Shown here: positions 4,247 to 19,475 of the stretch, piece after piece
How the letters are laid out: each line of letters opens with the position of its first letter
Numbering within the stretch: position 1 is the first letter of the stretch
Source: a virus
Reading direction: 5' to 3' (one strand)
Length of the DNA stretch: 21,660 bases
IMG/VR virus record: IMGVR_UViG_3300012920_006141
Location: 1-21,660 of that record
Position numbers and translations under genes: made by a program
The notes under the pieces: generated by a model
Told to the model about the DNA's origin: nothing
Databases searched by the model: none
What the model saw: only the letters and a program-made list of their open reading frames with translations

Positions 4247-4702
4247 ATGAAAAAAATATTAATTATTTTTATCTTATTATCTGGGTGTTCACCTACTGTG
4301 AATCCTACAGCTCAGCAATATTTAGGTTTGCATGAGAAGAAAAACAACGAATCGTTGTATGAGATACTTGGTGTTGACCCACTAAAGACAGAGTGGTGTG
4401 CAGCATTTGTATCTCATGTACTCAAACAAGATGGAATACCAACTGCAGAGCATCCGTTATGGTCTAGGAGTTATTTGGAGTGGGGAAAGAAAGTGAAAGA
4501 AGGTAGGAAGGGCGATCTTGTTATCTTTAAAAGAGATGGATCAGATTGGCAAGGACATGTAGGATTCTTTGTTAGTGAGACTCATTCATTCATTTTGGTT
4601 CTAGGTGGAAATCAAAACAACAAAGTTGGATACAAACTTTATCCTAAAAAGAATCTACTTGGGATTCGACGCTTTGATGGCGTCAATAGCTTGATACCGT
4701 AA
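4247..4702 (+). CDS. Lipoprotein-type CHAP/NlpC-P60-like peptidoglycan hydrolase (TIGR02594-like)
   Basis: 151 aa. A Lys-Lys then hydrophobic N-terminus ends in the lipobox LLSGC (Cys14), so it is probably exported and lipid-anchored. The rest matches the TIGR02594-type cysteine peptidase/amidase family: catalytic Cys51 in EWCAAFVSHVL, His104 in GHVGFFV, polar residue Asn122 in LVLGGNQNN, and GDLVIFKRDG between. A role in cell-wall cleavage at lysis or entry is inferred. It is the only complete rightward gene here and has its own TATAAATA late promoter. No clear ribosome site precedes the ATG. A TTG at 4238 would add three residues. The 3' end overlaps the convergent gene by 48 nt. Confidence 0.82.
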   Translation: MKKILIIFILLSGCSPTVNPTAQQYLGLHEKKNNESLYEILGVDPLKTEWCAAFVSHVLKQDGIPTAEHPLWSRSYLEWGKKVKEGRKGDLVIFKRDGSDWQGHVGFFVSETHSFILVLGGNQNNKVGYKLYPKKNLLGIRRFDGVNSLIP

Positions 4703-5725
4703 CTTACCAACCTCTTCTGCAATACTACCATTTCCAATATTTGCATCTGACTTCATGTCATTAACTTTTTGCTGATCAGCAATAGTTTTAGCTGCCATGT
4801 GATCACTATGATCTGGAGTCTGATATTCATAAAACTTTTTGTACCAATTGTCCCAAAAGTCTTCGCCTGTTTCGAGAGCTATTTCCATAGCTTTGATAAT
4901 ATGTCTTGGCTGCTTGGTATCCATTGTAGTTGTAACCGTACCATTACAAACAACACCATTTCTTGATATGATATGTTGATTAGGATGTGTTCCAACATGA
5001 TGAAAGATATTAGTTTTAAAGTACCAATTATCCATTCCAACTTCTTGAATATAATCAGCAGATGGTTGACCCATACCAATTGTAGGAACGCGAGCAAGAG
5101 CAGACATAAAGTATGATGCACCACTATATGAAAAGTGCATTCGAGCACCTAACATTGTTCGATACATCTGTTCATATGGCATTGCATATGATACTTCTTT
5201 TACTTTCAATCCGTGATGCTTTGCTTCTTTGTATACTTTTTCCATACATCGAGATAACTTATCTGTACTCCATGTAGATACTTTTAGTGGCTCAAACACT
5301 TGAAGTGATACATAATCACTTTCGATTGGTTTCCATGTTTCTTTGGTCTCCCACATATATCTGCTATACCAACCACTGTTACGAAACACTGCCATATTTG
5401 TATTTTGATATATCGAGAACTTAATTCCAGCATCAGGTTTACGCATGGTGTTGATAAACCATTCAACTCTTTCCATTGAAGTCTCTGGATCAGCGTCTTT
5501 GTATTTGTGATCGTGAGGAAAGATTATACAAACTTCATATGGATCTTTTATACTAAACTCATCATAGTTCATTTGAGCTGTACAAAAAGCATGGCTAAGT
5601 TTATCAATAACAGGTAACATAAAGTACCTTGTGTGAGCACACAATCTAATAATTAATGACTTGGAAGGATTAACAGCACGTCCATCATCTTCACAATTGA
5701 TACAAATATTTTTTATATGTCTCAT
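4655..5725 (-). CDS. Putative glycosyltransferase (GT-B-like), low certainty
   Basis: 356 aa. The middle contains YRTMLGARMHFSYSGASYF then ALARVPTIGMGQP, which resembles the C-terminal nucleotide-sugar side of heptosyltransferase/GT-B enzymes, where a sensed Ser/Gly loop precedes a hydrophobic strand ending in G-x-P. An N-terminal strand-helix pattern is also present. No decisive catalytic residue can be named. It shares an ATGA overlap with the 2OG oxygenase upstream and is the last gene of the leftward glycan-chemistry block. Its 3' 48 nt overlap the hydrolase gene on the other strand. Confidence 0.5.
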   Translation of the reverse strand: MRHIKNICINCEDDGRAVNPSKSLIIRLCAHTRYFMLPVIDKLSHAFCTAQMNYDEFSIKDPYEVCIIFPHDHKYKDADPETSMERVEWFINTMRKPDAGIKFSIYQNTNMAVFRNSGWYSRYMWETKETWKPIESDYVSLQVFEPLKVSTWSTDKLSRCMEKVYKEAKHHGLKVKEVSYAMPYEQMYRTMLGARMHFSYSGASYFMSALARVPTIGMGQPSADYIQEVGMDNWYFKTNIFHHVGTHPNQHIISRNGVVCNGTVTTTMDTKQPRHIIKAMEIALETGEDFWDNWYKKFYEYQTPDHSDHMAAKTIADQQKVNDMKSDANIGNGSIAEEVGKLRYQAIDAIKASNPK

Positions 5726-6249
5726 ATAGCTTTGTTTTTATATTCAGGATTTTCAACTTGAGTTGGATCTATTAAGAAATAGTTGTATGTGTATCTAGTG
5801 CCAGTAGATCTATAGTCGTGCCATGTCACATCATCTTTACCACAGAAGACAAACATTCTATTTGGTTTCCATTCAACATCTATAAGAGGTTCACCATCAC
5901 GATCTTTGTATACTCTTGTCCCAAGGTTAGTTTCTGGATGAAGGTATAGTACTGCTGACATAATTTTAAATGGTGCATCAACATGTATAGGATGAACTGC
6001 ATCACCTTTAGTAACAGCATAATGAATAAATTTCTTTAGAGTTCTATATCCTCTTTTCTCATAAAAGTAATTCAACAAATTTGCAACTTGTGGTGTTGGA
6101 TCTTTATCAAAGAAGTGTCGCTGTACCAAATCTTCTTTAGGTTGAGGAACACATTTACCTATCTTACATAATTGATCGAATTCCTCTTGTGGTAAGAAAT
6201 CATCTATGATAAGATATTCCCATGGATCTGTTTCATGTTGTATTTTCAT
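5722..6249 (-). CDS. 2-oxoglutarate/Fe(II)-dependent oxygenase-like protein
   Basis: 175 aa. The iron-binding triad is visible: His89-x-Asp91 in HPIHVDAPFK and distal His144 in TWHDYRSTG, with Arg152 placed to bind 2-oxoglutarate, all on a double-stranded beta-helix pattern (MSAVLYLHPE, RMFVFCGK, YTYNYFLID). Such enzymes hydroxylate proteins, sugars or small molecules; the substrate is unknown. It is coupled by ATGA overlaps to the radical SAM gene before it and the putative glycosyltransferase after it, which suggests a shared pathway. It is not closely similar to the other 2OG protein at 18873. Confidence 0.8.
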   Translation of the reverse strand: MKIQHETDPWEYLIIDDFLPQEEFDQLCKIGKCVPQPKEDLVQRHFFDKDPTPQVANLLNYFYEKRGYRTLKKFIHYAVTKGDAVHPIHVDAPFKIMSAVLYLHPETNLGTRVYKDRDGEPLIDVEWKPNRMFVFCGKDDVTWHDYRSTGTRYTYNYFLIDPTQVENPEYKNKAI

Positions 6250-7220
6250 TTTCTATAATCTCTCATATCAAAGGCTCCACCTGTTAGTGAATTGTAGTTT
6301 GCTTCCCAATTAGACCACACAAGAGCTTCTGGAGTTTCATATAGCATATCACAATTCTTACAATAGTCAATACTATCAAACTCATGCATCTCATGTGCTT
6401 TTCTTAGTTTGTTGTATTCTTCACCATACCATATATCTTCAATAGTTTGATGAGATAGATGACCCAACACAGCTTTGCTATCTTGACCCAGGACCATACA
6501 GCAAGGAACTACTGCACCCTCCATACCATCAATGCCACCTGCACGTACAATCAGATCAGGTGAGAACGGTCGTCCACAACTTCTTTTCTTTCTTCCAACT
6601 CTCCAATCTACTCCATCGAGCTGACCGGACCAGTTATGCATTTTCCATATTGATGCTTGAATTCCAGGAACATGATCAATCCAATTTGTTCGATACTGTT
6701 CTACTTCATAATCAATATTATCATTATCAAGTATTAGTGAATACGAACCTATCTTAGCTTTAGAACCTACCTCTTCAATATATTCAATAGTCTCTAATGC
6801 GTTATGCATAACAAGATAGAAGTTGTCTTCACTCATTTGTTCATGATATTTTTGTTTGTTATATCCTGTTACTGAAACTCGAGCAAAATGTAAACCAGCA
6901 TCAACAACCTTTTTCATTGCATCGCCAGTCATTTTAGATCCGTTTGTAATGAAGCTCATTTTAAAACCACGATCTGTTCCAGCTTGAATGAAATCATGTA
7001 GCTTCTTATTCATAAACGGTTCACCAGATCCTTCGAGATAGATTTCTTCAACTTCACTATCCATAAGTTGATCTAATGTGTTACAGAACATTTGATAGTT
7101 CATCATCTTTCTAAATGTACGTTCACGACCACCTTCAAAAGAATGAGGACAAAACACACACTTATAGTTACAAGCGCCGCACACTTCAATTACGGCTTTT
7201 TTAATTGGCAAAGTAGTCAT
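6246..7220 (-). CDS. Radical SAM enzyme with C-terminal SPASM domain
   Basis: 324 aa. The radical SAM [4Fe-4S] motif is C17-NYK-C21-VF-C24, followed by EGSGEPFMN (GGEP-type SAM contact, residues 63-71) and ITNGS (91-95). The C-terminus has SPASM-type cysteines Cys215, Cys240-Cys241 in VVPCCMV, and Cys287/Cys290 in YCKNC, which would hold auxiliary clusters. SPASM enzymes modify peptides or small molecules including sugars; the target here is unknown. The start overlaps the sulfotransferase-like gene by 20 nt and the stop overlaps the 2OG oxygenase start (ATGA). Confidence 0.9.
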   Translation of the reverse strand: MTTLPIKKAVIEVCGACNYKCVFCPHSFEGGRERTFRKMMNYQMFCNTLDQLMDSEVEEIYLEGSGEPFMNKKLHDFIQAGTDRGFKMSFITNGSKMTGDAMKKVVDAGLHFARVSVTGYNKQKYHEQMSEDNFYLVMHNALETIEYIEEVGSKAKIGSYSLILDNDNIDYEVEQYRTNWIDHVPGIQASIWKMHNWSGQLDGVDWRVGRKKRSCGRPFSPDLIVRAGGIDGMEGAVVPCCMVLGQDSKAVLGHLSHQTIEDIWYGEEYNKLRKAHEMHEFDSIDYCKNCDMLYETPEALVWSNWEANYNSLTGGAFDMRDYRK

Positions 7221-7920
7221 TGTAAAAACGAGTCCTGTTTAGCTTAGCTTGTAGTTTTTCTTCATAGATTTCATTTTCTACCAAGTGATATAAATGATTG
7301 GTTCCTTGTGCCCACAGATCAGGGACATAGTTTATAACATCCTGGGTTTCGTATATTTGTATTCTCTCTGTATCAGTTCTACGAGCCTTGCTATAAACTT
7401 TATCCATATTTATTAATGAACTTTCTAGCTGCTCATAACACTGCTTGACTACAGCATCGAGATCTTGTACCTTATTTATTTTTTCAATCATCCTATCTTC
7501 TGATATTTTTGAAAAAGGATTCCAAGTATTAGTAATCACAGAAAAGACAAAAGATCTCAATTGTTCTTTAGCATCTTGTCTAAACAAAAATATATTTCTA
7601 TACCCTGCTGCACACGAATCAGATATCAATTCTTTTAACATATGCATACCATTACTCTTGATGTCATCAGGGTGTTTTTCATATGTAAATGGTATACTAC
7701 ACATTACTTTGAATGAATAGTTTGACCATATAGTTTCCAGAGCAATCTTACCAAATGGTGTAGCTATAGCTGGTACAATTCCATGATTCGATAATGGTTC
7801 CCAATGTTTGGGTATTGCGTTTAAGTCATTCTTAATAACGAGCTCTTTTATTAATGCAGAGCTTGCTGTCCGAGGCATCGTCCATACAATTGTTTTTCTT
7901 TGTACATCTTTAATCGTCAT
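7201..7920 (-). CDS. Sulfotransferase-like protein (P-loop PAPS-binding fold)
   Basis: 239 aa from ATG 7920. The N-terminal strand-loop TIVWTMPRTASSALIKEL (residues 10-27) matches the 5'-phosphosulfate loop (PRTGSSxL type), and NIFLFRQDAKEQLRSF (109-124) fits the 3'-phosphate site with Arg114 and Ser123. Such enzymes move sulfate from PAPS to sugars or other hydroxyls. The longer frame starting at 7995 would overlap the SPASM gene by 86 nt. The chosen start overlaps it by 11 nt. It sits between two radical SAM genes. Confidence 0.7.
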   Translation of the reverse strand: MTIKDVQRKTIVWTMPRTASSALIKELVIKNDLNAIPKHWEPLSNHGIVPAIATPFGKIALETIWSNYSFKVMCSIPFTYEKHPDDIKSNGMHMLKELISDSCAAGYRNIFLFRQDAKEQLRSFVFSVITNTWNPFSKISEDRMIEKINKVQDLDAVVKQCYEQLESSLINMDKVYSKARRTDTERIQIYETQDVINYVPDLWAQGTNHLYHLVENEIYEEKLQAKLNRTRFYNDYFAN

Positions 7921-8245
7921 TATCAAACACACTACACATTCGTTCACAGGGTTGAGGAACAGTTTCATCTGATTCCCAACTGTCTGGGAGGTCAATGTTA
8001 AACCAATCGGATGACATAATTTCTTGTAGAGTGTGATTCTTTATATTGTAGTCTTCTTTATTATCATTGTACTTCTTTAATACTTCATTCTCTGAGTATT
8101 GTTTTGTTAACCATGGGTTAGGATCATTCATAAATGCATAGTGTAGATTACCCAAGTAACAACATGGGTATACTTGCCCATCTGGATTGATGAGAACTCT
8201 ATCAGCCTTTGCCCACATACACTCAATACAAATTTTATTACTCAT
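7910..8245 (-). CDS. Stand-alone SPASM-domain protein, partner of the radical SAM gene upstream
   Basis: 111 aa. It carries only the auxiliary-cluster half of a SPASM enzyme: C6-IE-C9, then GQVYPCC (Cys28-Cys29) and C100-x3-C104. The same Cys plan occurs in the C-terminus of the 324-aa radical SAM protein (GAVVPCC, CKNC). It starts inside the last codons of the 254-aa radical SAM gene through an 8-nt ATGAGTAA overlap with no good ribosome site, so it is probably made by coupled re-initiation. Together the two genes equal one ordinary radical SAM/SPASM enzyme. Confidence 0.75.
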   Translation of the reverse strand: MSNKICIECMWAKADRVLINPDGQVYPCCYLGNLHYAFMNDPNPWLTKQYSENEVLKKYNDNKEDYNIKNHTLQEIMSSDWFNIDLPDSWESDETVPQPCERMCSVFDNDD

Positions 8246-9002
8246 AAATTTTCTGTTCTTTATCATATTCCTGAGATGAAGCTATCCATGGATTCTGGAT
8301 GATGTGGTTCATATCACGATCTATCTCCTCCAAGTATTCTTCTTGGCCATCCTCAGTTACGTAATGAAATTTGTTACTCTTTATGAATCTATCTGATCTG
8401 ATCACATAATGAAACTTAGATCCATACATTCTAGTCATTTTTATAATATCATGTACATGTTCTTGGTTATGTTTAAATAGAACAATGAAGGTTTTAGTTA
8501 TCCCACCACCTTCTGAAAACGCTTCCATATTGTCTAGAACTTTTTGTAGTTCTACCTTCTTACGATACTTAGCATGCATTTCTTGATTAATGCCATCAAC
8601 ATCAAAGTAACAAGTTACTCGACTCTTACCTTTGTTTCCTAACTCATACCACCAATCAGTAGATCTGGTACCACCATTAGTGTTGATGTGTATTGTTGAT
8701 TCACTATTATCTATAATGTAGTTACAAATTTTTACTAAGTCTTTGTTCATTGCAGGATCACCCCATGTTCCGCAAAACTCAAAGTCTCGAATATGTTTTA
8801 CTGACTCATAAGGAAATCGTTCTACAAAGTTTTCAAATGTCCATTGCTGTAAAGGTAACCACTTAGCTTTACCTAGACCGTTGACATCCGTTCTATGACA
8901 CTGTGGACAAGAGGCATTACAATATGTCGTTAGATCAACCCACACTTTAAGCACAGGCTGGTCTTGTTCAACCATTTTTTTGAAGAGGCCTCTTTGACTC
9001 AT
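8238..9002 (-). CDS. Radical SAM core enzyme lacking a fused SPASM domain
   Basis: 254 aa. The cluster motif is C28-NAS-C32-PQ-C35, followed by FEFCGTWGDP (SAM-contact region) and HINTNGG, then YFDVDGIN. The chain ends soon after the core barrel, where a SPASM domain would normally follow; that domain is encoded by the next gene in another frame. The ATG overlaps the stop of the 33-aa micro-ORF as ATGA. The substrate is unknown. The neighbours suggest sugar or surface modification. Confidence 0.88.
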   Translation of the reverse strand: MSQRGLFKKMVEQDQPVLKVWVDLTTYCNASCPQCHRTDVNGLGKAKWLPLQQWTFENFVERFPYESVKHIRDFEFCGTWGDPAMNKDLVKICNYIIDNSESTIHINTNGGTRSTDWWYELGNKGKSRVTCYFDVDGINQEMHAKYRKKVELQKVLDNMEAFSEGGGITKTFIVLFKHNQEHVHDIIKMTRMYGSKFHYVIRSDRFIKSNKFHYVTEDGQEEYLEEIDRDMNHIIQNPWIASSQEYDKEQKIYE

Positions 9003-9100
9003 TCATCTTCCTCATAGATAAAACTATGGTCATCATCTTGTTTTTTTCTACTGAACAATCCTATAAAGAAATATTTTATTTTAAGAATTAGCATGGACAT
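8999..9100 (-). CDS. Micro-ORF, 33 aa, ending FIYEEDE
   Basis: MSMLILKIKYFFIGLFSRKK followed by an acidic tail. A short hydrophobic/basic N-terminal helix precedes DDDHSFIYEEDE. The stop overlaps the next ATG as ATGA, and the start overlaps the end of the SGNH gene, which fits a translated gene in a coupled chain. A second ATG lies two codons in (9094). The plan resembles the 35-aa micro-ORF at 14107-14214. Confidence 0.6.
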   Translation of the reverse strand: MSMLILKIKYFFIGLFSRKKQDDDHSFIYEEDE

Positions 9101-10049
9101 TATTATAAACCTCTATAAACTTATCTGCAATATACTTATGGGCAGTAGTGTTTGGATGAGTATCATCTGGCCAAGCAATAGATGTTGCCTCTCCACCTAA
9201 TTCTACTTTGTATTGGCCAGCTATAGATTGACCTCCATAACGCATAACAAATGGCCAATTGATAAAATGTTTTTTTATCTTTTCTAACTCCCAAAAGTAT
9301 ACAGTGTCAGTCATTGCTTTCATCATCCACTGTTCGTCATAATCTCTTGCTTCGTCATAAATGTATTGATAGTCATTAGTTTCATCATAATCATCCATCG
9401 TAGCCTTTGCAAACATTTTTCTATTACCAACATCTCTAACATATCTTTTAAAAAAGTTCAATGAAGGTCCCATGATCTGACCAAATATAAACTTGGCATT
9501 AATTGATTGTGCTAAAAGATAGCAAGTAAAAATTTGATTCATGGCACTGTCAACATGAGATTGAACCCATCGATCACTACTAATTATGTTATGAGCATTT
9601 GGATTTTTTAACCAATCATTTGCACCAATTGATTTCATATCTTTTGAAATCTTACCTGGCCAATCACCAGCTTCCCAGTAACGTCTTAGTTTACCGTTAA
9701 TTGTAAAAACAAGATCGTTAGCATGAACAATTGGAAATCTACACCACTCAGTTCCACCAACTAGTACATACTTTATTCTATCACCATATCGAGCAATAGC
9801 TTTAGTTAATGTGTGAGTCATATATTCAAATGATTTACCAGGGTTAGCAACATTCAACAACTCATACTCTTGCCCATCAGTTTCTGATATATGATCACGT
9901 ACGTACCATGGCCATGCATGTTCTGCTGTTTTAAAGTTAAACGAAGATTTATATTGTTCTGTTGTGAAAGAACAACCTGTTGCAAATACTACTGGAAGAT
10001 GTTTAGTTTTAAGTTTCCATTTAGGTCGAGGGGTCAGAATTTGTGTCAT
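9081..10049 (-). CDS. SGNH/GDSL-hydrolase-like protein
   Basis: 322 aa. VVFATGCSFTTEQ (Ser27) matches block I with GDS changed to GCS, and NVANPGKS resembles block II. WPDDTHPNTTAHKYIADKF gives the C-terminal Asp295/His298 pair of block V. SGNH enzymes usually remove or transfer acyl groups on sugars or lipids. The extra Trp/Tyr-rich middle (about residues 110-250) is long for the family. The start overlaps the small exported protein gene by 29 nt, with GGA about 7 nt before ATG. Confidence 0.78.
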   Translation of the reverse strand: MTQILTPRPKWKLKTKHLPVVFATGCSFTTEQYKSSFNFKTAEHAWPWYVRDHISETDGQEYELLNVANPGKSFEYMTHTLTKAIARYGDRIKYVLVGGTEWCRFPIVHANDLVFTINGKLRRYWEAGDWPGKISKDMKSIGANDWLKNPNAHNIISSDRWVQSHVDSAMNQIFTCYLLAQSINAKFIFGQIMGPSLNFFKRYVRDVGNRKMFAKATMDDYDETNDYQYIYDEARDYDEQWMMKAMTDTVYFWELEKIKKHFINWPFVMRYGGQSIAGQYKVELGGEATSIAWPDDTHPNTTAHKYIADKFIEVYNNVHANS

Positions 10050-11770: not shown

Positions 11771-12550
11771 TCATGTATTTATGTAGTTAAATCTAAAGAT
11801 ATCTTCTACGACCTCTTCGAAGTCTTCAAGTCGTAGCATATTAGGTCCATCACTTGGTGCGTTATCTGGATCAGGATGTACTTCTATGAAAAAATTTGAA
11901 ATCCCAAGAGCACTGCTTGCCCGAGCCAAACCAGGAATGTAAGACCTGTCGCCACCACTAGAAGTTTTATTATCTCCCGGTCGTTGAACGCTGTGGCTAA
12001 TATCATACACAATTGGACAGTTATAAGCCATAAGCATATACTGCAAACCAGTAAAGTCAACGACAAGATTATTGTAACCAAAACTAGTACCTCTCTCTGT
12101 TATCCATACTTCTTTTGCATCTTTTGTCTTACTCAAAATACCAGCCACATCCCAAGGTGCCAGGAACTGACCTTTCTTAATATTAACTATTTTATCTGTA
12201 CGACAAGCCTCTCTTATCAGATCTGTTTGTCTACACAAGAATGCTAGAATCTGTAATACATCAAAACAAGAATTAAACGTATCTCTAATTGTTCTTACTT
12301 GCTCAACACTATGAACATCTGTTAGAGTTTTTAGACCAGGGATCTCTTCCTTAATGTCTATAAAACCATGAGCTGTTGGATACAGTCCTAACCCTCGTTC
12401 ACCACCAATAGATGTTCTATTTGCTTTATCGAAGCTCGCTTTGAATATATATTCAATTTCATACTTATCACATATGTCTTTACAATGCTTGGCAATCTCC
12501 ATTGATTGTTCTAGCGATTCGTATTGACATGGTCCAGCAATTATTCTCAT
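11771..12550 (-). CDS. kdsA: KdsA, 3-deoxy-8-phosphooctulonate (KDO-8-P) synthase, metal-dependent type
   Basis: 259 aa. It condenses phosphoenolpyruvate with arabinose-5-phosphate to KDO-8-phosphate, the first committed step to the inner-core LPS sugar KDO. Family blocks are clear: FKASFDKANRTS (37-48), AFLCRQTDL (103-111), VNIKKGQFLAPWD (122-134), TERGTSFGYNNLVVDF (151-166) and FIEVHPDP (221-228). Cys8 in AGPCQYES, His186, Glu223 and Asp234 match the metal ligands of the Aquifex type (Cys11, His185, Glu222, Asp233); E. coli KdsA has Asn instead of the Cys. Length is close to normal. The start overlaps the upstream stop as ATGA. A bacterial gene acquired by the phage is likely. Confidence 0.95.
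   Translation of the reverse strand: MRIIAGPCQYESLEQSMEIAKHCKDICDKYEIEYIFKASFDKANRTSIGGERGLGLYPTAHGFIDIKEEIPGLKTLTDVHSVEQVRTIRDTFNSCFDVLQILAFLCRQTDLIREACRTDKIVNIKKGQFLAPWDVAGILSKTKDAKEVWITERGTSFGYNNLVVDFTGLQYMLMAYNCPIVYDISHSVQRPGDNKTSSGGDRSYIPGLARASSALGISNFFIEVHPDPDNAPSDGPNMLRLEDFEEVVEDIFRFNYINT
11776..11783 (-). promoter_or_regulatory. CATAAATA octamer, weak late-promoter candidate
   Basis: CATAAATA on the leftward strand lies over the last codons and just before the stop of kdsA, 18 nt before the ATG of the 42-aa gene. It matches NATAAATA, but the leader it would leave is very short, so it may be chance coding sequence. Confidence 0.2.
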
Positions 12551-12852
12551 TTTGATAAATCTTTCCTCACCGATTCAGTTGCACCTTTTATCATACTTGG
12601 ATAATCTCCAATAAACGTACCAGCTTCTAACATATCTTTAGTTAGTACGTCTTTGTGTCTGTGTTCTATTTCGTCCCAATGTTCCAATATCTTCTTTGCA
12701 AGTAGATCAAATGTTCTATCTGATAATATTGGATCGTCTTGTTCATAATAGGCATAAGCTGCCATTAAGTACCATGGAACGTACATATTGATAGATTGTT
12801 CACACACTTCAGCGCATGCCTTCTCTATCTCAATTATACGACTGTCCATCAT
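12547..12852 (-). CDS. Stand-alone protein resembling the Ia domain of NAD-dependent DNA ligase
   Basis: 101 aa. The stretch MAAYAYYEQDDPILSDRTFD followed by LAKKILEHWDEIEHRH resembles the N-terminal NAD-recognition helices of bacterial LigA, where a Tyr-rich YY-x-x-DDP-x-(I/L)SD-x-x(Y/F)D motif is diagnostic. The adenylation domain with its lysine is absent, so it cannot ligate on its own. Similar isolated domains occur in phages with unknown role. GGGAG precedes two adjacent ATGs; either could start. It overlaps the metalloprotease-like gene by 23 nt and kdsA by ATGA. Confidence 0.65.
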   Translation of the reverse strand: MMDSRIIEIEKACAEVCEQSINMYVPWYLMAAYAYYEQDDPILSDRTFDLLAKKILEHWDEIEHRHKDVLTKDMLEAGTFIGDYPSMIKGATESVRKDLSK

Positions 12853-13204
12853 ACAACTCCCTTAATTGTTTCTCCATTGTATGAGCTTCAACCTCTTGCC
12901 AACGTTCCTCATAAGGACTTTCAGTGTCCATAACCATGCACTCAAGGAACTGCTTAACGTGCACAAGTTCGTGCAACACAGTCGTAATCAAATCTGAAAG
13001 GGAAAGAGATCTGCTTAGACGAAGGCTAAATTCGTTTTCGTCTTCATACAGTACATCGCCACAAACTCCTTTTTTGGTAGTAGCACTAATATTTATATAA
13101 ACATCATCTTCATGGGGGAAAAGTTTATTAGATCCAAATGCAATAACATCACAGATTAGATCTTCTTTGACTTTTGAGAAATTACTTTCAAATTCTACAA
13201 TCAT
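12830..13204 (-). CDS. Phage zinc-metalloprotease-like protein (HExxH)
   Basis: 124 aa. TTVLHELVHVKQF carries HExxH, and ERWQEVEAHTMEKQL downstream supplies a Glu in the position expected of a third zinc ligand. The N-terminal half is beta-rich. Similar small SprT/gluzincin-like proteins are frequent in T4-like marine phages; the substrate is unknown. It is the first gene after promoter C and has the strongest ribosome site in the window, AGGAGG 5 nt before ATG, so high early expression is likely. Confidence 0.75.
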   Translation of the reverse strand: MIVEFESNFSKVKEDLICDVIAFGSNKLFPHEDDVYINISATTKKGVCGDVLYEDENEFSLRLSRSLSLSDLITTVLHELVHVKQFLECMVMDTESPYEERWQEVEAHTMEKQLRELYDGQSYN

Positions 13205-13224
13205 GTTGTCCTCCTGTTACGAAT

Positions 13225-13253
13225 AACATACAGGAAAGTAAATATAAAGTCAA
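13225..13253 (-). promoter_or_regulatory. Sigma70-like promoter, copy C of the TAACTGTTGACTTTA family
   Basis: TTGACT (13248-13253), a 17-nt spacer and TATGTT (13225-13230). It shares TAACTGTTGACTTTA with copies A and B; the leading TAA is the stop codon of the SGNH gene. A small GTTA-TTCG-TAAC hairpin overlaps the predicted start. It drives 13204 leftward. Confidence 0.72.
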
Positions 13254-13256
13254 CAG

Positions 13257-14117
13257 TTATTTGTAAATATTTTCTACAAAACCTTCTTCGAGATCTAGTG
13301 GAAGATTGTATGCGATAGTATCATATAACTTATTAGCCAGGATACTATGATTTTCTACAGAAAGATGGCAAGGACGAGCATCAACACCAGTATCCCAAAC
13401 ACTGTTGAAATAGCGTTCTCTTACTTTTAATCTTTGTTTTATATCATCGCCTTTAAACTCATTTAGTGATACGAAGTTAAGATATCCATTAACACTCCAA
13501 ACATCTTTATTAGGATCAGGAATAAAATTCATTAAATGTTTCTGTAACTCTGTATCCTCTACCCAATAACAAGACGGTTCAAAACCTGGCAGAACTAATA
13601 TATTTGAACCAAAGGTTTTTCTAATATAATCGATCGCAGTGAACAAACTACACTGTTCTGTGTATTGCAACTGACCACTTTCATGATGGTTGTGAATTCT
13701 CCAATTGTATGCCACATCCATTTGTTTAGCAATCTTGGGTCTCTCAGAATGTTGAAGTTCTGAGAGTATTCCTTCTCTAAAAGATTTTCTACCTAAGTTA
13801 GTTAAATGCGAGCAACCTGGATGATCTGGGACTAACCATTTTCGGTTCCAATCACTTGTGATAACAATATGAATATCACCTTCATTGACTTGATCGTGCA
13901 TGTGTAATGCAAGCAATTGAGTAACAATGTAATCATTTCCTACACCATCACGAGCGGCACCTTCAGAAATTTCCATGTCCAGTTTATCTGATAACAACTT
14001 CTGCCATGACTGATCCAAACCAAACTGCAGTTTGTATTTGTTACCGTGATACTTATTTGAATTCATTCCATGGATAGAAGCAAAGCTATCACCATGCATA
14101 ACAATATTATTCTTCAT
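13257..14117 (-). CDS. Second SGNH/GDSL-hydrolase-like protein
   Basis: 286 aa. NIVMHGDSFASIHG (Ser11) is block I with intact GDS. The C-terminal segment VDARPCHLSVENHSILANKLYD places Asp246 and His251 where block V is expected, though the spacing (D-x4-H) is longer than the usual DxxH. The segment VVITSDWNRKW resembles the strand before block III. It probably acts on acyl groups of sugars or lipids; unproven. It is preceded by an 11-nt overlap with the 35-aa micro-ORF and followed by promoter C, so it ends the 19.4-13.2 kb chain. Confidence 0.72.
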   Translation of the reverse strand: MKNNIVMHGDSFASIHGMNSNKYHGNKYKLQFGLDQSWQKLLSDKLDMEISEGAARDGVGNDYIVTQLLALHMHDQVNEGDIHIVITSDWNRKWLVPDHPGCSHLTNLGRKSFREGILSELQHSERPKIAKQMDVAYNWRIHNHHESGQLQYTEQCSLFTAIDYIRKTFGSNILVLPGFEPSCYWVEDTELQKHLMNFIPDPNKDVWSVNGYLNFVSLNEFKGDDIKQRLKVRERYFNSVWDTGVDARPCHLSVENHSILANKLYDTIAYNLPLDLEEGFVENIYK

Positions 14118-14214
14118 AAATGTAAGGATCCTTTAGACGAGATTCCTTATCAAGCTTCCTTTGCTTTCTTTTAGTTTCCAGCCAATATTTAAATTTATAC
14201 CACAGTGCTATCAT
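14107..14214 (-). CDS. Micro-ORF, 35 aa, ending DPYIYEE
   Basis: A basic, aromatic N-terminal helix (MIALWYKFKYWLETKRKQRK) is followed by LDKESRLKDPYIYEE. The ATG overlaps the previous stop as ATGA, and its stop lies 11 nt inside the SGNH gene, so it is part of the coupled chain. I remember similar very short K/Y/W-rich proteins ending in DP(F/Y)IY from marine T4-like phages. Function unknown. Confidence 0.65.
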   Translation of the reverse strand: MIALWYKFKYWLETKRKQRKLDKESRLKDPYIYEE

Positions 14215-14816
14215 GTCAGTTTACCTGTTCTTACTTCTACGTTTTCTGGCAAACTAACTTTTGCCTGTCCATGTTTATGATACACAACAAATTGTGTGTT
14301 TGGAAATTCTCTGAACAATCCTTCCCAGATTGGTCTCCAATTGTTTGCAAGACGATGAGTATTCATTGCATCTCTATCTGATTGTAAAACAAAGTCAGTT
14401 GTACTAACTAAGTTGAAATCAAATATAGAATCAAATCCGTACATGTGGATCTCATCACATCTTAATTTGTTGGCAGTGTAATGAGTACACATATGTCCAC
14501 AATTAAAGTCAGTATAGTTACGAACATACTTTGGTAATACAGTATAGAACTCTTTTATTTTTGGAGCATACTTCATATAGAATCCAGGTTGCATTTCTGT
14601 ATACTTTTTAGGTCTTGCTCCACAAACCCAATCATAAGCATTCATATTAACACTGCCTTCGTGAATTGCTTTAACCATTTTAAAGTCAACGATTGCAGTT
14701 GCATAGACATCAGTAATTAATGTAGGTGGTAAGTTACATGTCATCTTTATTCCAGGAGAAGGGTTATAAAATCTCCATGAGTCACCATTACCAATAATAT
14801 GAGCGACTTTACTCAT
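14211..14816 (-). CDS. Rossmann-type protein, possibly glycosyltransferase or nucleotide-sugar related
   Basis: 201 aa. It opens with AHIIGNGDSWRFYNPSPGIK (G-N-G-D-S), a nucleotide-binding-type loop seen in sialyltransferase-like (GT42) and MptE-like proteins. Later CDEIHMYGFDSIFDFN resembles the second nucleotide-binding strand of that fold. No catalytic His can be assigned with confidence. It overlaps the GT8-like gene by 8 nt (ATGAGTAA) and the 35-aa micro-ORF by ATGA. Placement within glycosyltransferase genes supports sugar-related activity. Confidence 0.5.
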   Translation of the reverse strand: MSKVAHIIGNGDSWRFYNPSPGIKMTCNLPPTLITDVYATAIVDFKMVKAIHEGSVNMNAYDWVCGARPKKYTEMQPGFYMKYAPKIKEFYTVLPKYVRNYTDFNCGHMCTHYTANKLRCDEIHMYGFDSIFDFNLVSTTDFVLQSDRDAMNTHRLANNWRPIWEGLFREFPNTQFVVYHKHGQAKVSLPENVEVRTGKLT

Positions 14817-15453
14817 CCATCAAACTCCGAATATGTTTATTACCTTTTGTCCCTGTCCAGTGATTAATTAATATATCTTTTGGAGCAGTACCATCTAAGT
14901 GATCTAACCTTAGTGTATTATATTTATGTGGTATTTCATTAATAAAAACCATCCGTTGTAGATCATCAAGCAATGCATGCAATCCTTCTTGATCACCTCT
15001 ATGTAAAGAAGGATTCAAACCAGAGCTCCATTTTGCTAGTACACTAGGTGTTGAAGCAAATCCAACTACACCGCTATTGTACATTGTAGTGTTAAATCTT
15101 TTTGACCAAGGTCTATCAACAACCATGTTTAACTTTTCTGGAACAATCAAATCAAACATATGATCGATATTTCCTAATACTTCACAATCTAGATCTAACC
15201 AGAATGTTTTCTTGAATGGAGAGTTCATCATACAGATTGGTTTTGCAAACCATCCCTTGCCTTTTGTTGATGTTAGATCAGCAAGTGTATCTGCATGCTT
15301 ACTAGCGTACGATGCCATTTCTTTTGACATGCCTAAGTCAACAACTAAGAGATGTGTACTGTTATATTGTTTGAAGTTTTTTATGAACCAGGGTAACATC
15401 CATTCCGTTTTGGAATCTGAACCTGTCATAAATCCGTTATAATCAAGCCTCAA
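14809..15453 (-). CDS. GT8-like glycosyltransferase (GT-A fold, DxD)
   Basis: 214 aa. KTFWLDLDCEVLGNIDHMF contains the metal and nucleotide-sugar DxD (Asp87-Leu-Asp89). It is followed by MYNSGVVGF, GDQEGLHALL and a C-terminal INHWTGTKGN, the order expected for GT8-type enzymes (the final HxxGxxKP-like block binds the nucleotide phosphate). Retaining transfer of a hexose to a surface glycan is likely. It overlaps the GT25-like gene by 11 nt. Confidence 0.78.
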   Translation of the reverse strand: MRLDYNGFMTGSDSKTEWMLPWFIKNFKQYNSTHLLVVDLGMSKEMASYASKHADTLADLTSTKGKGWFAKPICMMNSPFKKTFWLDLDCEVLGNIDHMFDLIVPEKLNMVVDRPWSKRFNTTMYNSGVVGFASTPSVLAKWSSGLNPSLHRGDQEGLHALLDDLQRMVFINEIPHKYNTLRLDHLDGTAPKDILINHWTGTKGNKHIRSLMDE

Positions 15454-16090
15454 TGATCTCTACCTTGTTGTGTTTTGCTCTACAACCATTTTCGTTTTGG
15501 ATTGTTGTAAATGTATCATGAGCTTCAACAGGCCAAGGATACTTTTCTTCTAAGAAAGGAAATGTTCGGACATCTAAGAAAACATCAGTTGGTTTAGCTC
15601 CAACCAAACGACAATGATCTATCAACACTTGTGCTGTCTTTGGTTTGATTCGATAAGCATGAGCACCAGGAAAGTATTGTTTAGATTTTAGTTGCTGAAC
15701 ACCTAAAAGATTGGGAGTGTTAAATTTACCATATGATGGCTTTCCAAAGCTAACACATCCTCGATATAGTAATATGTTTGGAATACTGTCTACACATACA
15801 GCGTCATGTTCAAAGATTGTGAATTCCATGTTACGATGTATACACTCTTTCCACAAAAAGTAATGAGATAAGAATGCTGCTCGAGCGTTATCTGATCTTG
15901 ACCAAACCTCATCAAAGTCAGTCATAATAATCTTTTCTTCAGCAATGAGCTTGTCTAGATCGTCTCGAGGTGTTATAGCTTTCCATTTCTCAATATCTAA
16001 TCCACCAGTAGTTTGACCAGACTTGATACATCTCTTTGCAGCTTCTTCAGATTTTTCATTTCCAAAAATAGTAATTACATAATGTTTCAT
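15443..16090 (-). CDS. GT25-like (LOS-type) glycosyltransferase, copy 1
   Basis: 215 aa. AAFLSHYFLWKECI, then FTIFEHDAVCVD (EHDAV 94-98), then FPGAHAYRIKPKTAQVLID and PTDVFLD follow the block order of GT25, a family that adds galactose or other hexoses to lipooligosaccharide. The adjacent gene has the same blocks, so the pair probably arose by duplication followed by strong divergence. Joined to its neighbour by an ATGA overlap. Confidence 0.78.
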   Translation of the reverse strand: MKHYVITIFGNEKSEEAAKRCIKSGQTTGGLDIEKWKAITPRDDLDKLIAEEKIIMTDFDEVWSRSDNARAAFLSHYFLWKECIHRNMEFTIFEHDAVCVDSIPNILLYRGCVSFGKPSYGKFNTPNLLGVQQLKSKQYFPGAHAYRIKPKTAQVLIDHCRLVGAKPTDVFLDVRTFPFLEEKYPWPVEAHDTFTTIQNENGCRAKHNKVEIIEA

Positions 16091-16779
16091 AATGTTGTTG
16101 TCGAGGGTAATCCCTGTACCTGTGTATAATATTGTTTTGAGACACCCATCTTCTTAATATTCTGATAACACATCAGAGCATCATTTGGCCAAGCTCCAAT
16201 CTCATTTACTTTATCAATTAGATCTTTAGCACCTTGTGGGTTAATTATATAGGCTGAGTTTCCAGCCAAGCCTTGAGGTATGTTCCATCCATCAATCATA
16301 GGAACATTTTGTACAGCATCTTCTCTGTGAATAATACTGTTGTGAAACTCACGTGACTTACGAGTTGCACCAATTGGATTATTAATACCTACAATGTTGA
16401 ACCCTTGCATGTTAAAATCACTCGGTAGCTTTTCTGTAAATATTGCATCATGTTCTAGTACGAGTATTGTCTCATCATTTTCTACAGCAGTCAACCATAA
16501 TCTATAGTGAGACATAAAACAAGCAACACGTTTGTTTGGATCTTCTGTTTGATATGCAGACATTTGTAAACCAGTCTTGAAACATAATTGTGTTCCAATC
16601 CATGGCCATGTCCAATCAACTTTCAATAGTTTAAACTGTTGGATAACATTCTTTGCATGAGTAGCATCAAATCGTTCTATCTCAAATTCATTCTTAACTC
16701 TATGACTTGAATCAACAAGTGTGCTAAATCCTTTTTCGGATGTAACATCATTCTTTAATACTATTGAATATACTTTCAT
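16087..16779 (-). CDS. GT25-like (LOS-type) glycosyltransferase, copy 2
   Basis: 230 aa. ACFMSHYRLWLTAV, ILVLEHDAIFTEKL (EHDAI 109-113), LAGNSAYIINPQGAKDLID and WPNDALMC follow the GT25 block order. The N-terminus MKVYSIVLKNDVTSEKGFS fits the first strand of the family. It is a diverged tandem partner of the next gene. ATGA overlaps on both sides place it in a tightly coupled set with the methyltransferase. Confidence 0.8.
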   Translation of the reverse strand: MKVYSIVLKNDVTSEKGFSTLVDSSHRVKNEFEIERFDATHAKNVIQQFKLLKVDWTWPWIGTQLCFKTGLQMSAYQTEDPNKRVACFMSHYRLWLTAVENDETILVLEHDAIFTEKLPSDFNMQGFNIVGINNPIGATRKSREFHNSIIHREDAVQNVPMIDGWNIPQGLAGNSAYIINPQGAKDLIDKVNEIGAWPNDALMCYQNIKKMGVSKQYYTQVQGLPSTTTL

Positions 16780-17399
16780 GTTAACTCTATAATATAGCTA
16801 TCTGGTTCTCCACTTGTCTTACGAAGATCATGTCTTGTTATTTTCATACCAGACTTTTCTAACGCTAACAAGAAGTTGTTATTATCTAATTGTCCATATA
16901 TATCACTATGTAACTTTAACCAAGGATGTTTTAGTTCTTCTACAGTCATTCGTTCCAGTGGCCAGACATCTTCAATTATATACGATCCACCTTGTTTGAG
17001 CAACGGATTTAAATTAATAAATGTTTCTTTATTTGCTTTGGGTGTATGCATACCATCATCAATAATAAAGTCAAATTCAATACCAGGAAATGCTTTAGCT
17101 ATCTGACTTCTAATAGCAGGATTCATACTATCACCTTTGAACCAATGAACTCTTTCATCCTTGAGGACTTCAAGCTCTTCTGGCTTTACACGAACAAATA
17201 AATCTAGTGCATATAAGTTTGCATTGGGAAAGTAATCGAGGAATGCTGAAGTAGATGCACCTTTGAATATACCTACTTCTAAGATATTAAGAGGTTGGTC
17301 TTTTACAGACTCAAAGATCTTTTCATAAATGCGATCGTATGAATGTTTATGACCTTTGTCACAGTCGTACTTATCAAATAATGCCTTGAGCTTCTTCAT
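16776..17399 (-). CDS. Class I SAM-dependent methyltransferase (TylF/macrocin-type or Methyltransf_24-like)
   Basis: 207 aa. LNILEVGIFKGASTSAFLDY (38-57) is SAM motif I, LYALDLFV (62-69) the acidic strand after it, and FDFIIDDGMHTPKANKETF (109-127) the metal/acceptor motif typical of sugar O-methyltransferases. The N-terminal YDCDKGHKHSYDRIYEKIF also recurs in that group. O-methylation of a sugar is the best inference. ATG 17399 is preferred because the longer frame would overlap the sulfotransferase gene by 116 nt. Confidence 0.82.
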   Translation of the reverse strand: MKKLKALFDKYDCDKGHKHSYDRIYEKIFESVKDQPLNILEVGIFKGASTSAFLDYFPNANLYALDLFVRVKPEELEVLKDERVHWFKGDSMNPAIRSQIAKAFPGIEFDFIIDDGMHTPKANKETFINLNPLLKQGGSYIIEDVWPLERMTVEELKHPWLKLHSDIYGQLDNNNFLLALEKSGMKITRHDLRKTSGEPDSYIIELT

Positions 17400-18090
17400 A
17401 ACTAAGTTCCTTGTAGTATGTATTTTTTGTCGCGCCGGTTCCAAATTCATAACCCCAATACTCAACATCTTTCTTATACCAATCACCAATGATTTGTCTT
17501 GTCTTCTTTGTATACAAATCTAGATAGTTACCTGGATTAAGAGCTGTAACATTTCTCGCTCGAGTCATTTGTGGTATGTTGAAATATTTACACAAGTCCT
17601 GATTAAGATGTTCAAATCTAATTATATCACATCGAACCACGCCAGCGTTATCAGTAACATGATCAAAAGCCGGATACCATCCACGGACAGCGCGATGCCA
17701 CATATAATCTTCAGCACCCCACTTATGTCTTTCCTCGATAAACGCTTCAAACGATGAAACATCCGCATAACTCGGTTTTACCTTTTTCTCTACTTCTATC
17801 ACCTTCTTCGCAAAAAAGTAACGAGAAACAACACGATCCCAAGGATTCCTAATAACCGCAAAAGCGGTATGACTGTCTCTGTAATTAGTATCCAAGTCTC
17901 TCCATCGTGCATGCTCGGCACCATGATGATCTCCTGTTGCATGCATCTTGTCATACAACTTTGATGTGTACTGTTGATTAATATGTCTACTAGGATTATT
18001 TATTAAAATTTTACCTCGTAGCTTATCGCTATGTCGGATTGTCATTCCAGCATTCTTTGGAATGTGGATAAAGATCTTTTGATCAGACAT
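17374..18090 (-). CDS. Sulfotransferase (Sulfotransfer_2 family type)
   Basis: 238 aa. KIFIHIPKNAGMTIR (5-19) is the PAPS 5'-phosphosulfate loop (consensus HIPKTAGTT). TAFAVIRNPWDRVVSRYFF (76-93) is the 3'-phosphate site with Arg81 and Ser89. These motifs are characteristic of carbohydrate sulfotransferases. Length is normal for short bacterial members. It lies between a glycosyltransferase and a methyltransferase with overlaps of 8 and 26 nt, so the acceptor is probably a sugar chain made by the neighbours. Confidence 0.9.
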   Translation of the reverse strand: MSDQKIFIHIPKNAGMTIRHSDKLRGKILINNPSRHINQQYTSKLYDKMHATGDHHGAEHARWRDLDTNYRDSHTAFAVIRNPWDRVVSRYFFAKKVIEVEKKVKPSYADVSSFEAFIEERHKWGAEDYMWHRAVRGWYPAFDHVTDNAGVVRCDIIRFEHLNQDLCKYFNIPQMTRARNVTALNPGNYLDLYTKKTRQIIGDWYKKDVEYWGYEFGTGATKNTYYKELSYEEAQGII

Positions 18091-18871
18091 GTCTCATTAG
18101 TTCCTCTACATTCTCTCCACGATTAGGAAGTTTATCTTTCAAGAAGAAGTGAACAAAGTTACACTCCTTGATTCGGTTCATACCAATTCCAGTAAACAAA
18201 CCATTCCAATGAAATGTCAGATTTTTTACTTTCATCTTCTCTTTCTTTACCCAATAGTTTAGTAGGGTCTGATCTGTAGACCATTTCCATGGACCTACTC
18301 CATCAACAAAGTTTTTAAACTCAGCACGTTCAATAAATTGTTTTGGTGTTTGTCCTCTTAGATACTTTTCGATACCTTTATTGACAACCATCATACCCAT
18401 GTTATAGAAATTTGCACCACCAGGATGATTCCAATCGAATAAATGACTCATACCTTGCATACTATATTGCATACGAGTATAGTTAGCAATCTTATGTTGA
18501 TACTCTATCGTACAAGGCATCTCACGCTCAATGACACCGCCAAAGTCGTACTCCATGGGTACTTTATCAAAGACACTTGTACTACATGTATCTCTAATCC
18601 ATATATCTGAATCAATGATAGCTATTTGGTCATAGTGATCGAAGTAACCAAATGCATTCTCTTTTTCATATATAGGAAGATATCCTAATCGAGCAGTAGC
18701 TTCTTTACTTCGATTGGTATTGAAAGGATCAGGTTTGATTCTTAGGAGAGGTTGAGTTTGAATAACATAGTCTGCATTAATACGATCTGCATATGCTTTT
18801 ACACTAGCTGTACAATGATCATATAACTTTGACTTATTTCCAACGTATACCTGATAGATTAGAGTTTTCAT
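18083..18871 (-). CDS. GT-A glycosyltransferase with DxD motif (GT8-like)
   Basis: 262 aa. LIYQVYVGNKSKLYDHC begins a GT-A Rossmann strand; DQIAIIDSDIWIRDT carries Asp87-Ser-Asp89; FYNMGMMVVNKG, STDQTLLNYW and a final CNFVHFFLKDK follow in GT8-like order. ATG 18871 lies one base beyond the upstream stop; the longer TTG start at 18901 would overlap the 2OG gene by 29 nt and is less likely. The product probably adds a hexose to a cell-surface or virion glycan. Confidence 0.75.
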   Translation of the reverse strand: MKTLIYQVYVGNKSKLYDHCTASVKAYADRINADYVIQTQPLLRIKPDPFNTNRSKEATARLGYLPIYEKENAFGYFDHYDQIAIIDSDIWIRDTCSTSVFDKVPMEYDFGGVIEREMPCTIEYQHKIANYTRMQYSMQGMSHLFDWNHPGGANFYNMGMMVVNKGIEKYLRGQTPKQFIERAEFKNFVDGVGPWKWSTDQTLLNYWVKKEKMKVKNLTFHWNGLFTGIGMNRIKECNFVHFFLKDKLPNRGENVEELMRHV

Positions 18872-18872
18872 T

Positions 18873-19475
18873 TTAGTCTCGAAATAATTTAGATCTGTCA
18901 ATTATCATATTAAAGGCTAGGCTCATTCTATAGTCATCTGTATTGTTAACTTCTACACTATGATCTAACCAGCCAGGGAAAAGAACAAGAGTTCCTACTT
19001 CAGGCTGAACTCCAGCCATCATTGATTTCATCCAAACTTTACTAGCTTCAAAACCTAAGTTAGGATTATGAAATCTAATCGCTCCATCTTTACCATTTGT
19101 TTTATAATAATATACACCAGATATATCAAACTGTCCATGAGCGTGAACAGCACCTACTCCTCCTCTACCACTTCTAGTCATCCATGATTGATGAATAGTG
19201 CATGGTAATGGTTGATGAGATACACCGTGTGTATATTCATCTGTACAAGTGTTGATATACTCATGTAGCTTAGTGAGGTTATATTTTTTTATGATATTTG
19301 AATTACCTGACGAATCACTAGTCTGTAAATGATCTTCACCCCACTGATGTTGCAACGCACCGGATGAAAAAACTAGTTCTTCTTCTATTGCTTTAATTTC
19401 TTTTTGAATTGGTGCAAGAGTTTCAGGATCAGCATTCGTAATGTATATCGGGGTGGGGTATATTGCTTCTATCAT
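18873..19475 (-). CDS. 2OG-Fe(II) oxygenase (TIGR02466-type)
   Basis: 200 aa. The family order is clear: IYPTPIYI at the start, SWMTRSGRGGVGAVHAHGQF (metal region His111/His113), ISGVYYYKT, then GTLVLFPGWLDHSVEVNN (distal His172) and DYRMSLAFN (Arg183 for 2-oxoglutarate). This group is very common in marine T4-like phages; substrates are not established. It overlaps the 79-aa gene upstream by 47 nt, the longest same-strand overlap in the window. Confidence 0.88.
   Translation of the reverse strand: MIEAIYPTPIYITNADPETLAPIQKEIKAIEEELVFSSGALQHQWGEDHLQTSDSSGNSNIIKKYNLTKLHEYINTCTDEYTHGVSHQPLPCTIHQSWMTRSGRGGVGAVHAHGQFDISGVYYYKTNGKDGAIRFHNPNLGFEASKVWMKSMMAGVQPEVGTLVLFPGWLDHSVEVNNTDDYRMSLAFNMIIDRSKLFRD

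What the first reader, a model, noticed from the sequence alone, without database searches (positions are those of the whole stretch)
4655..19475. A large phage locus for sulfated, methylated, KDO-related glycan chemistry
In under 15 kb there are up to six glycosyltransferase-like genes, two sulfotransferase-like genes, one sugar-type methyltransferase, KdsA, two SGNH proteins, two 2OG oxygenases and two radical SAM systems, mostly linked by 1-20 nt overlaps. KdsA makes KDO-8-phosphate, which implies action on LPS-type sugars. The set looks like a pathway to remodel the host surface (for example to block superinfection) or to coat the virion. Families are from motifs; the pathway is inference.
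Basis: partly seen in the sequence, partly recalled or inferred. Interest (0 to 1): 0.62.

Follow-up and report, generated by a model that had tools for sequence, protein, structure and literature searches.

The report
Marine T4-like phage's variable sugar-building cassette
This fragment of a T4-like marine phage carries an ordered set of sugar-transferring and sugar-decorating genes of a kind already known in ocean phages; its less usual points are a KDO-precursor enzyme without its usual partner gene and a transferase folded like those that use CMP-linked sugars.

Summary
The gene list is largely right. Tools confirm a KDO-8-phosphate synthase, two GT25 and two GT8-like transferases, one clear sulfotransferase and one by fold, a methyltransferase, two 2OG oxygenases and two radical SAM systems. 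The sixth transferase (4655) and both SGNH calls rest on motifs only. Gene 14211, without a family hit, is modelled with a fold closest to CstII sialyltransferases (Z 10.3). Five transferases form a conserved operon: all five, in order, in 18 of 27 loci fetched with only one of them; GT25a-to-14211 spacing is constant (~1.25 kb in 17 of 18), while the slot after the GT8-like gene varies (0.6-4.7 kb). The rest is not one unit. KdsA lies behind its own promoter in a SprT unit, is in 0 of those 27 loci, and belongs to a marine-phage KdsA clade that normally has kdsB close by (43 of 44 records); three kdsA phages here lack it. Genes 4655-10049 are variable. No membrane or export genes are present, so any surface product needs host machinery; target and activity are untested. 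Hypervariable glycan islands are published for pelagimyophages and cyanophages, and kdsA/kdsB are reported viral genes. New variant of a known kind.

The parts
19854..20564 (-). PhoH-like; T4-like gene that flanks the glycan operon on its upstream side
   Evidence: PF02562 1.7e-38, phrog_170; upstream of the GT8-like gene in relatives
18873..19475 (-). 2OG-Fe(II) oxygenase, PF13759 type
   Evidence: PF13759 6.5e-19, phrog_81 3.8e-36; not found downstream of GT8 in the 27 operon loci
18083..18901 (-). GT8-like glycosyltransferase, first gene of the conserved backbone
   Evidence: PF01501 5.8e-4, below cut-off; over 590 relatives in viral contigs; conserved DxD in A3
17374..18090 (-). PAPS sulfotransferase (variable slot)
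   Evidence: PF03567 1.3e-6 over cut-off; phrog_3347; conserved HIPKNAG and RNPWDR..S loops in A4; PDB SULT1C2 E 0.0014
16776..17489 (-). class I O-methyltransferase (variable slot); the listed TTG start is probably too early
   Evidence: PF13578 2.9e-7; weak rhamnosyl O-methyltransferase match
16087..16779 (-). GT25 glycosyltransferase a (backbone)
   Evidence: PF01755 1.2e-13; 27 of 27 loci
15443..16090 (-). GT25 glycosyltransferase b (backbone)
   Evidence: PF01755 2.3e-9; 24 of 27 loci
14809..15453 (-). GT-A, glycogenin-like (backbone)
   Evidence: invariant DxD in A2; glycogenin-1 E 0.03; 19 of 27 loci
14211..14816 (-). GT42/GT29-like transferase, last gene of the backbone; a CMP-sugar donor is inferred
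   Evidence: AF2 pLDDT 91; CstII Z 10.3 over 171 of 200 residues; invariant G8-N9-G10 and C26-N27; 20 of 27 loci
13257..14117 (-). SGNH-like esterase or acyltransferase, window-specific end of the operon
   Evidence: GDS and late D..H motif seen in the sequence; no Pfam hit; only a 25% relative in L010
13225..13258 (-). sigma70-like promoter between the glycan operon and the SprT-12547-KdsA unit
   Evidence: AACTGTTGACTT with TATGTT, 17-nt spacer; sites of similar form before SprT in most relatives printed, judged by eye
12830..13204 (-). SprT-like metalloprotease, first gene of the kdsA unit
   Evidence: PF10263 4e-4, below cut-off
12547..12852 (-). 101-aa conserved phage gene between SprT and KdsA
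   Evidence: found after SprT in many relatives without KdsA
11771..12550 (-). KDO-8-phosphate synthase (KdsA), metal-dependent type, phage clade
   Evidence: NF003543 318.6 bits, cut-off 242; PDB 3fs2, 1fwn; phage clade support 1.0
9081..10049 (-). SGNH-like protein, accessory block
   Evidence: GCSFT and D..HPN motifs seen in the sequence; no family hit
8238..9002 (-). radical SAM core enzyme, first half of a split pair
   Evidence: PF04055 2.1e-14; invariant CxxxCxxC in A6
7910..8266 (-). stand-alone SPASM partner; an ATG at 8245 overlaps the stop of the radical SAM gene by 8 nt
   Evidence: PF13186 8.6e-6; overlap seen; pairs in other phages
7201..7995 (-). second sulfotransferase by fold and motif; true start probably near 7929
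   Evidence: VIA top rows 3-OST-1, Stf0 and others, Z 8.7; PRTASSAL and R.D....R..S loops in A7; model pLDDT only 71
6246..7220 (-). radical SAM-SPASM enzyme, fused form
   Evidence: PF13186 1.8e-10, PF04055 2.4e-10
5722..6249 (-). second 2OG-Fe(II) oxygenase
   Evidence: phrog_274 7.6e-9; homologous to S-SCSM2R 2OG proteins, PF13640 1.5e-6; HxD...H...R seen in the sequence
4655..5725 (-). possible GT-B glycosyltransferase; orphan
   Evidence: no family hit and no relative in viral contigs
182..1102 (-). gp32 single-strand DNA-binding protein, T4-like flank
   Evidence: phrog_224 2.9e-112; best named match Phage C48C1, 54%

Best explanation
The window is part of a T4-like marine phage genome that holds a glycan-assembly operon (14211-18901, with 13257-14117 at its end) between PhoH and gp32. 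Shown: five transferases with conserved order form the backbone, and one slot in it varies between phages and holds tailoring enzymes (here a sulfotransferase and a methyltransferase). Inferred: the backbone enzymes build a short oligosaccharide in the cytosol of the infected cell, with 14211 adding a sugar from a CMP donor, and the slot enzymes give each phage its own decoration, much as serotype loci do. Inferred: the product most likely alters a surface glycan of the host through the host's own export machinery, which would shut out competing phages. KdsA (11771-12550) is a separate accessory; it would raise the supply of KDO-8-phosphate and rely on host KdsC and KdsB to reach CMP-KDO. That KDO is the sugar 14211 uses is possible, not shown. 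Rough confidence: glycan operon 0.85; CMP-sugar donor for 14211 0.6; host surface rather than virion as target 0.45; KDO as the 14211 substrate 0.25.
For: All five backbone genes, same order and strand, in 18 of 18 loci that have all five, among 27 loci fetched with the GT8-like gene alone and long enough to tell; GT25a-to-14211 distance 1.22-1.30 kb in 17 of 18, GT8-to-GT25a insert 0.6-4.7 kb. Slot families in relatives are typical glycan genes. 14211: pLDDT 91, top matches CstII, Z 10.3, and mammalian sialyltransferases. KdsA family, aligned active-site stretches and phage-clade origin. Separate transcription unit. kdsB close to kdsA in 43 of 44 other records, absent from the window, L010 and G051. 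Published parallel: glycosyltransferases in hypervariable regions of pelagimyophages and cyanophages, with the same proposed role (PMC7029224; PMC7824862).
Against: No protein of the block has a clear membrane segment, and no initiating transferase, flippase, polymerase or ligase was found, so a surface product depends wholly on the host. No acceptor, donor or product was shown. Fold likeness does not show donor specificity; thiamin pyrophosphokinases and HPPK score Z 8-9 too. Foldseek alone gave no significant match for 14211 (best E 0.065). The record is a 21.7-kb fragment, so kdsB or membrane genes may lie elsewhere.
Confidence: 0.5

Rival explanations
1. The operon glycosylates a virion protein such as a capsid decoration or tail fibre; sulfation and methylation decorate the virion.
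For: All enzymes look soluble and cytosolic, which suits protein acceptors and needs no export; in the relative C48C1 the matching region lies soon after large hypothetical genes and a baseplate gene.
Against: No acceptor protein is linked to the operon in the window; slot diversity resembles surface-antigen loci; no published virion glycan for these phages was found in the searches made.
Confidence: 0.25
2. KdsA and 14211 form one pathway: KdsA feeds CMP-KDO (through host KdsC and KdsB) and 14211 transfers KDO onto the product.
For: 14211 has the fold of CMP-sialic acid transferases; CMP-KDO is the one CMP-ulosonate that most Gram-negative hosts make (general knowledge); KdsA lies next to the operon in the window and in L010.
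Against: KdsA is absent from 27 of 27 loci with the operon and from 48 of 50 operon-type records searched; it is in another transcription unit; most phages with kdsA have kdsAB elsewhere, near DNA polymerase or UvsW-like genes.
Confidence: 0.2
3. The enzymes hypermodify phage DNA or make a small secondary metabolite.
For: T4-like phages glucosylate DNA (general knowledge); kdsAB in some relatives sits next to thymidylate-synthase-like and dCMP-deaminase-like genes (by inspection); a secondary-metabolite reading is published for some cyanophage clusters (PMC7824862).
Against: GT25 and GT8 are LPS and protein glycosylation families; no dNMP hydroxymethylase-like gene was identified in the window; slot genes are polysaccharide-type.
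Confidence: 0.1
4. The 4655-19475 block is only a chance pile-up of unrelated cargo genes.
For: Genes 4655-10049, KdsA and 13257 are absent or replaced in close relatives.
Against: The backbone is conserved in order and spacing in many contigs.
Confidence: 0.05

Closest known systems
Host recognition cluster / glycosyltransferase islands of pelagimyophages and T4-like cyanophages (PMC7029224, PMC7824862)
   Same: T4-like marine phage, hypervariable set of GT8 and other transferases with sugar-tailoring genes, same proposed role of surface change against co-infection
   Different: Here a fixed five-gene backbone with a GT42-like last gene is defined; the window shows no tail-fibre genes; the accessories include split radical SAM/SPASM and a lone kdsA
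kdsA/kdsB viral auxiliary genes of surface waters (PMC10653327) and KdsA/KdsB of Synechococcus phage S-SCSM2R
   Same: phage-encoded KDO-8-P synthase
   Different: those carry kdsB nearby (43 of 44 records here; S-SCSM2R); the window, L010 and the 121-kb record G051 have kdsA alone
Pelagibacter phage HTVC008M glycan cassette
   Same: a relative of GT14809 (32%) sits in a run of glycosyltransferase, methyltransferase, carbamoyltransferase, UDP-glucose dehydrogenase and 2OG genes
   Different: 14211 and the GT8-like gene have no match in it by tblastn; different tailoring genes
CstII-type sialyltransferases (GT42) and GT29
   Same: predicted fold of 14211, N-terminal GNG and CN motifs
   Different: no significant sequence or Pfam match; donor and acceptor unknown

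Membership tests
Hypervariable glycan island of T4-like marine phages | T4-like core genes flanking | tested here: met
   PhoH and gp32
Hypervariable glycan island of T4-like marine phages | several glycosyltransferases plus sugar-tailoring genes that vary between relatives | tested here: met
Hypervariable glycan island of T4-like marine phages | tail-fibre genes in the same region | tested here: inconclusive
   no fibre-like gene recognised in the window, but it is a fragment
KDO-8-phosphate synthase | family score over curated cut-off | tested here: met
   NF003543 318.6 bits over 242; TIGR01362 309.7 just under 314
KDO-8-phosphate synthase | active-site and metal residues of the metal-dependent type | tested here: met
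   AGPC, KASFDKANR, LCRQTD, NIKKGQFLAPWD, HSVQ and EVHPDPDNAPSDG aligned with 1fwn and 3fs2
KDO-8-phosphate synthase | enzyme activity on PEP and arabinose-5-phosphate | not testable with these tools
   needs an assay
Complete CMP-KDO pathway | CMP-KDO synthetase (PF02348) | tested here: not met
   none in the window, L010 contig or G051; all three are or may be incomplete genomes
GT42/GT29 CMP-sugar transferase | fold | tested here: met
   pLDDT 91; CstII Z 10.3, rmsd 3.8, 171 of 200 residues
GT42/GT29 CMP-sugar transferase | sequence-level family match | tested here: inconclusive
   only weak MptE-like PF01973; no PDB profile match
GT42/GT29 CMP-sugar transferase | use of a CMP-sugar donor | not testable with these tools
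   needs an assay
Radical SAM/SPASM enzyme (8238 + 7910) | CxxxCxxC and SPASM cysteines | tested here: met
   A5 and A6
Radical SAM/SPASM enzyme (8238 + 7910) | both parts in one chain | tested here: not met
   split in the window and in the 11 other pairs aligned; fused relatives exist in the MAG G094
Self-contained surface polysaccharide pathway (Wzx/Wzy or ABC type) | membrane initiating transferase, flippase/transporter, polymerase | tested here: not met
   no family hit and no hydrophobic segment in the glycan proteins; the window is a fragment

The most novel reading that the evidence does not exclude
Marine T4-like phages share a five-transferase glycan backbone that ends in a phage-specific CMP-ulosonate transferase, and some of them carry a stand-alone KdsA to raise the host's CMP-KDO supply for it, so that infected cells or virions bear a sulfated, methylated, KDO-containing glycan not made by the host alone.
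Probability: 0.15. Interest if true: 0.6.

Novelty: new variant of a known kind. Interest (0 to 1): 0.36.

Why it matters
Glycan islands in ocean T4-like phages are usually described as hypervariable. Here one part is fixed (five transferases, constant spacing) and one slot varies, which gives a testable model: backbone enzymes set the scaffold, slot enzymes set the type. The GT42-like fold of a widespread unannotated phage gene gives a concrete biochemical test (CMP-sugar use). The distinction between kdsAB and lone kdsA shows that kdsA in a phage should not be read as proof of a complete KDO pathway.

Tried and rejected
Near-identity search of phage records found only tRNA-Pro matches. Idea that the split radical SAM/SPASM pair was an assembly error: rejected, since pairs of diverged sequence are split in many contigs; idea that the split is a hallmark: rejected, since fused relatives exist. 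Frameshift reading of the split: the second frame is +1 to the first and no slippery site was seen, so restart of translation is likelier (inspection). Recent capture of kdsA from a bacterium: rejected, the bacterial KdsA found reach at most 52% identity against 66-82% for the phage ones, and the phage set is a supported clade. Genome collection scan for 14211: only five MAG contigs, of unknown status, possibly phage. Scans with 7201 and 4655 found no relatives. Foldseek alone was not significant for 14211 or 7201; the VIA second look was informative. Pfam, NCBIfam and PHROGs gave nothing usable for 13257, 9081 and 4655. Papers on marine phages with this gene combination, on phage sialyltransferase clusters and on C48C1: none found in the library held. 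Consensus promoter counts overall are no more than chance (71 found, 73 expected), so only the 12-mer found three times exactly is used.
Full report
What the window is. The window is a whole virus record of 21,660 bases, a fragment. gp32 (182-1102) and PhoH (19854-20564) mark a T4-like phage; the best named gp32 match is Phage C48C1 (Kyanoviridae) at 54%, then Methylophilales phages and cyanophages. The host is unknown. Nearly all genes lie on the minus strand. Searches are notebook entries.

Check of the gene list. Pfam, PHROGs and NCBIfam confirm GT25 twice, Sulfotransfer_2, a methyltransferase, the PF13759 oxygenase, KdsA, and radical SAM and SPASM domains. 18083 is only a sub-threshold GT8 match, but it has more than 590 relatives and a conserved DxD. 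14809 matches glycogenin weakly. 5722 has a PHROG match and is homologous to S-SCSM2R oxygenases that match PF13640. 7201 has no family hit; its model (pLDDT 71) has sulfotransferases in nearly all top VIA rows, best Z 8.7, with adenylate kinases at 7.4. 13257 and 9081 are SGNH by motif only, and 4655 is an orphan.

The conserved operon. Of 79 loci fetched with the GT8-like gene alone, 27 have at least 8.5 kb downstream. GT25a follows in 27, GT25b in 24, GT14809 in 19 and 14211 in 20. All five are present in 18, and in all 18 they are in the same order and on the same strand. The GT25a-to-14211 distance is 1.22-1.30 kb in 17 of the 18, whereas the GT8-to-GT25a insert ranges from 0.6 to 4.7 kb. 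Some loci may come from closely related contigs, so these are counts of loci, not of independent events. In the window the insert holds a sulfotransferase and a methyltransferase; in relatives the representatives include epimerases, GDP-mannose dehydratase, DegT aminotransferase, UDP-galactopyranose mutase, FkbM methyltransferase and Sulfotransfer_4 (that scan also includes neighbouring genes outside the slot).

14211. It has no clear family match. From 29 relatives AlphaFold2 gives pLDDT 91. VIA-align puts CstII sialyltransferases first (Z 10.3, rmsd 3.8, 171 of 200 residues) and mammalian sialyltransferases at about 8; HPPK and thiamin pyrophosphokinases score 8-9. Foldseek alone ranks a mammalian sialyltransferase first but without significance (E 0.065). 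The conserved GNG and CN motifs fit nucleotide binding. That it uses a CMP-sugar is an inference from the fold.

KdsA. It is a KDO-8-P synthase of the metal-dependent type by family score and by aligned stretches. 196 relatives were found in viral contigs by this scan. In a tree with 26 bacterial sequences the 55 marine phage sequences form a split with support 1.0; cyanophage S-SCSM2R and an Acinetobacter-labelled record fall outside. The bacterial sequences found reach at most 52% identity. In 43 of 44 records PF02348 (KdsB family) is present, close to kdsA in those examined; the exception is L010, the close relative of the window. A further record, G051 (121 kb), has the backbone, a KdsA about 100 kb away and no PF02348; its KdsA follows a PEP-carboxykinase-like ORF (by inspection). 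Window and L010 pair together (0.96) near kdsB-bearing L002, L003 and L005 (0.94), and G051 pairs with kdsB-bearing L029 (0.83), so loss of kdsB, or capture of kdsA alone, probably happened twice.

Separate units. A 52-nt gap at 13205-13256 holds AACTGTTGACTT with a -10-like element at 17 nt. The same 12-mer occurs exactly at 2026, 4223 and 13247, each at a short gap before a gene. It recurs before SprT in L010, and most of the relatives printed show promoter-like sequence just before SprT (by eye). KdsA therefore most likely belongs to a SprT-12547-KdsA unit, not to the glycan operon. Genes 4655-10049 are replaced or missing in L010 and other relatives.

Mechanism. The most likely reading is a cytosolic glycan-assembly operon with a fixed scaffold and a variable decoration step. 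None of the glycan proteins has a clear membrane segment and no export gene was found, so a surface glycan would need host machinery. The same proposal (surface change against co-infection) is published for pelagimyophages (PMC7029224) and cyanophages (PMC7824862), and kdsA and kdsB are reported among viral auxiliary genes of surface water (PMC10653327). In the passages read, none of these shows the product. Virion glycosylation remains an open rival.

Verdict. Real, and mostly of a known kind. The additions are the fixed backbone, the GT42-like fold of 14211, the lone kdsA with its phage-clade origin, and the split radical SAM/SPASM pairs.

Noticed in passing
window 4238-4702 (+): A plus-strand ORF, opposite to its neighbours, that looks like a lipoprotein with a CHAP or NlpC/P60-like domain (by inspection); relatives at 80% in L010 and 35-39% in L091 and L165.
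   Followed up: partly
window 2026-2037, 4223-4234, 13247-13258 (-): An exact 12-mer AACTGTTGACTT three times, each at a short gap before a gene: a likely shared promoter motif of this lineage.
   Followed up: partly
L187:6264-7562: A PEP-carboxykinase-like ORF (by inspection) directly upstream of, and overlapping, a lone kdsA in the 121-kb record G051; PEP is a KdsA substrate.
   Followed up: no
L004:9998-13258 and L187:7531-10121: kdsA (with or without kdsB) followed by cupin, cytidylyltransferase-like, thymidylate-synthase-like and dCMP-deaminase-like ORFs (by inspection).
   Followed up: no
L187:10118-12304, L010:15578-16523, L145:498-1405, L030:14023-15080: Further split radical SAM + small SPASM ORF pairs of a second subfamily; fused relatives exist in contigs of the MAG G094 (L228, L231, L232).
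   Followed up: partly
one member of alignment A8: A RuBisCO large-chain-like match (PF00016, 1.2e-21) among ORFs near the glycan operon of a relative.
   Followed up: no
L196 (Campylobacter phage CP220): Four annotated radical SAM domain genes, and a fifth by family name, with an amidinotransferase and sugar-transferase-like genes in one block: a parallel in an unrelated phage.
   Followed up: no
window 10945-11421 (-): Glycine-zipper protein with a signal-like N-terminus, conserved beside the operon in relatives.
   Followed up: no
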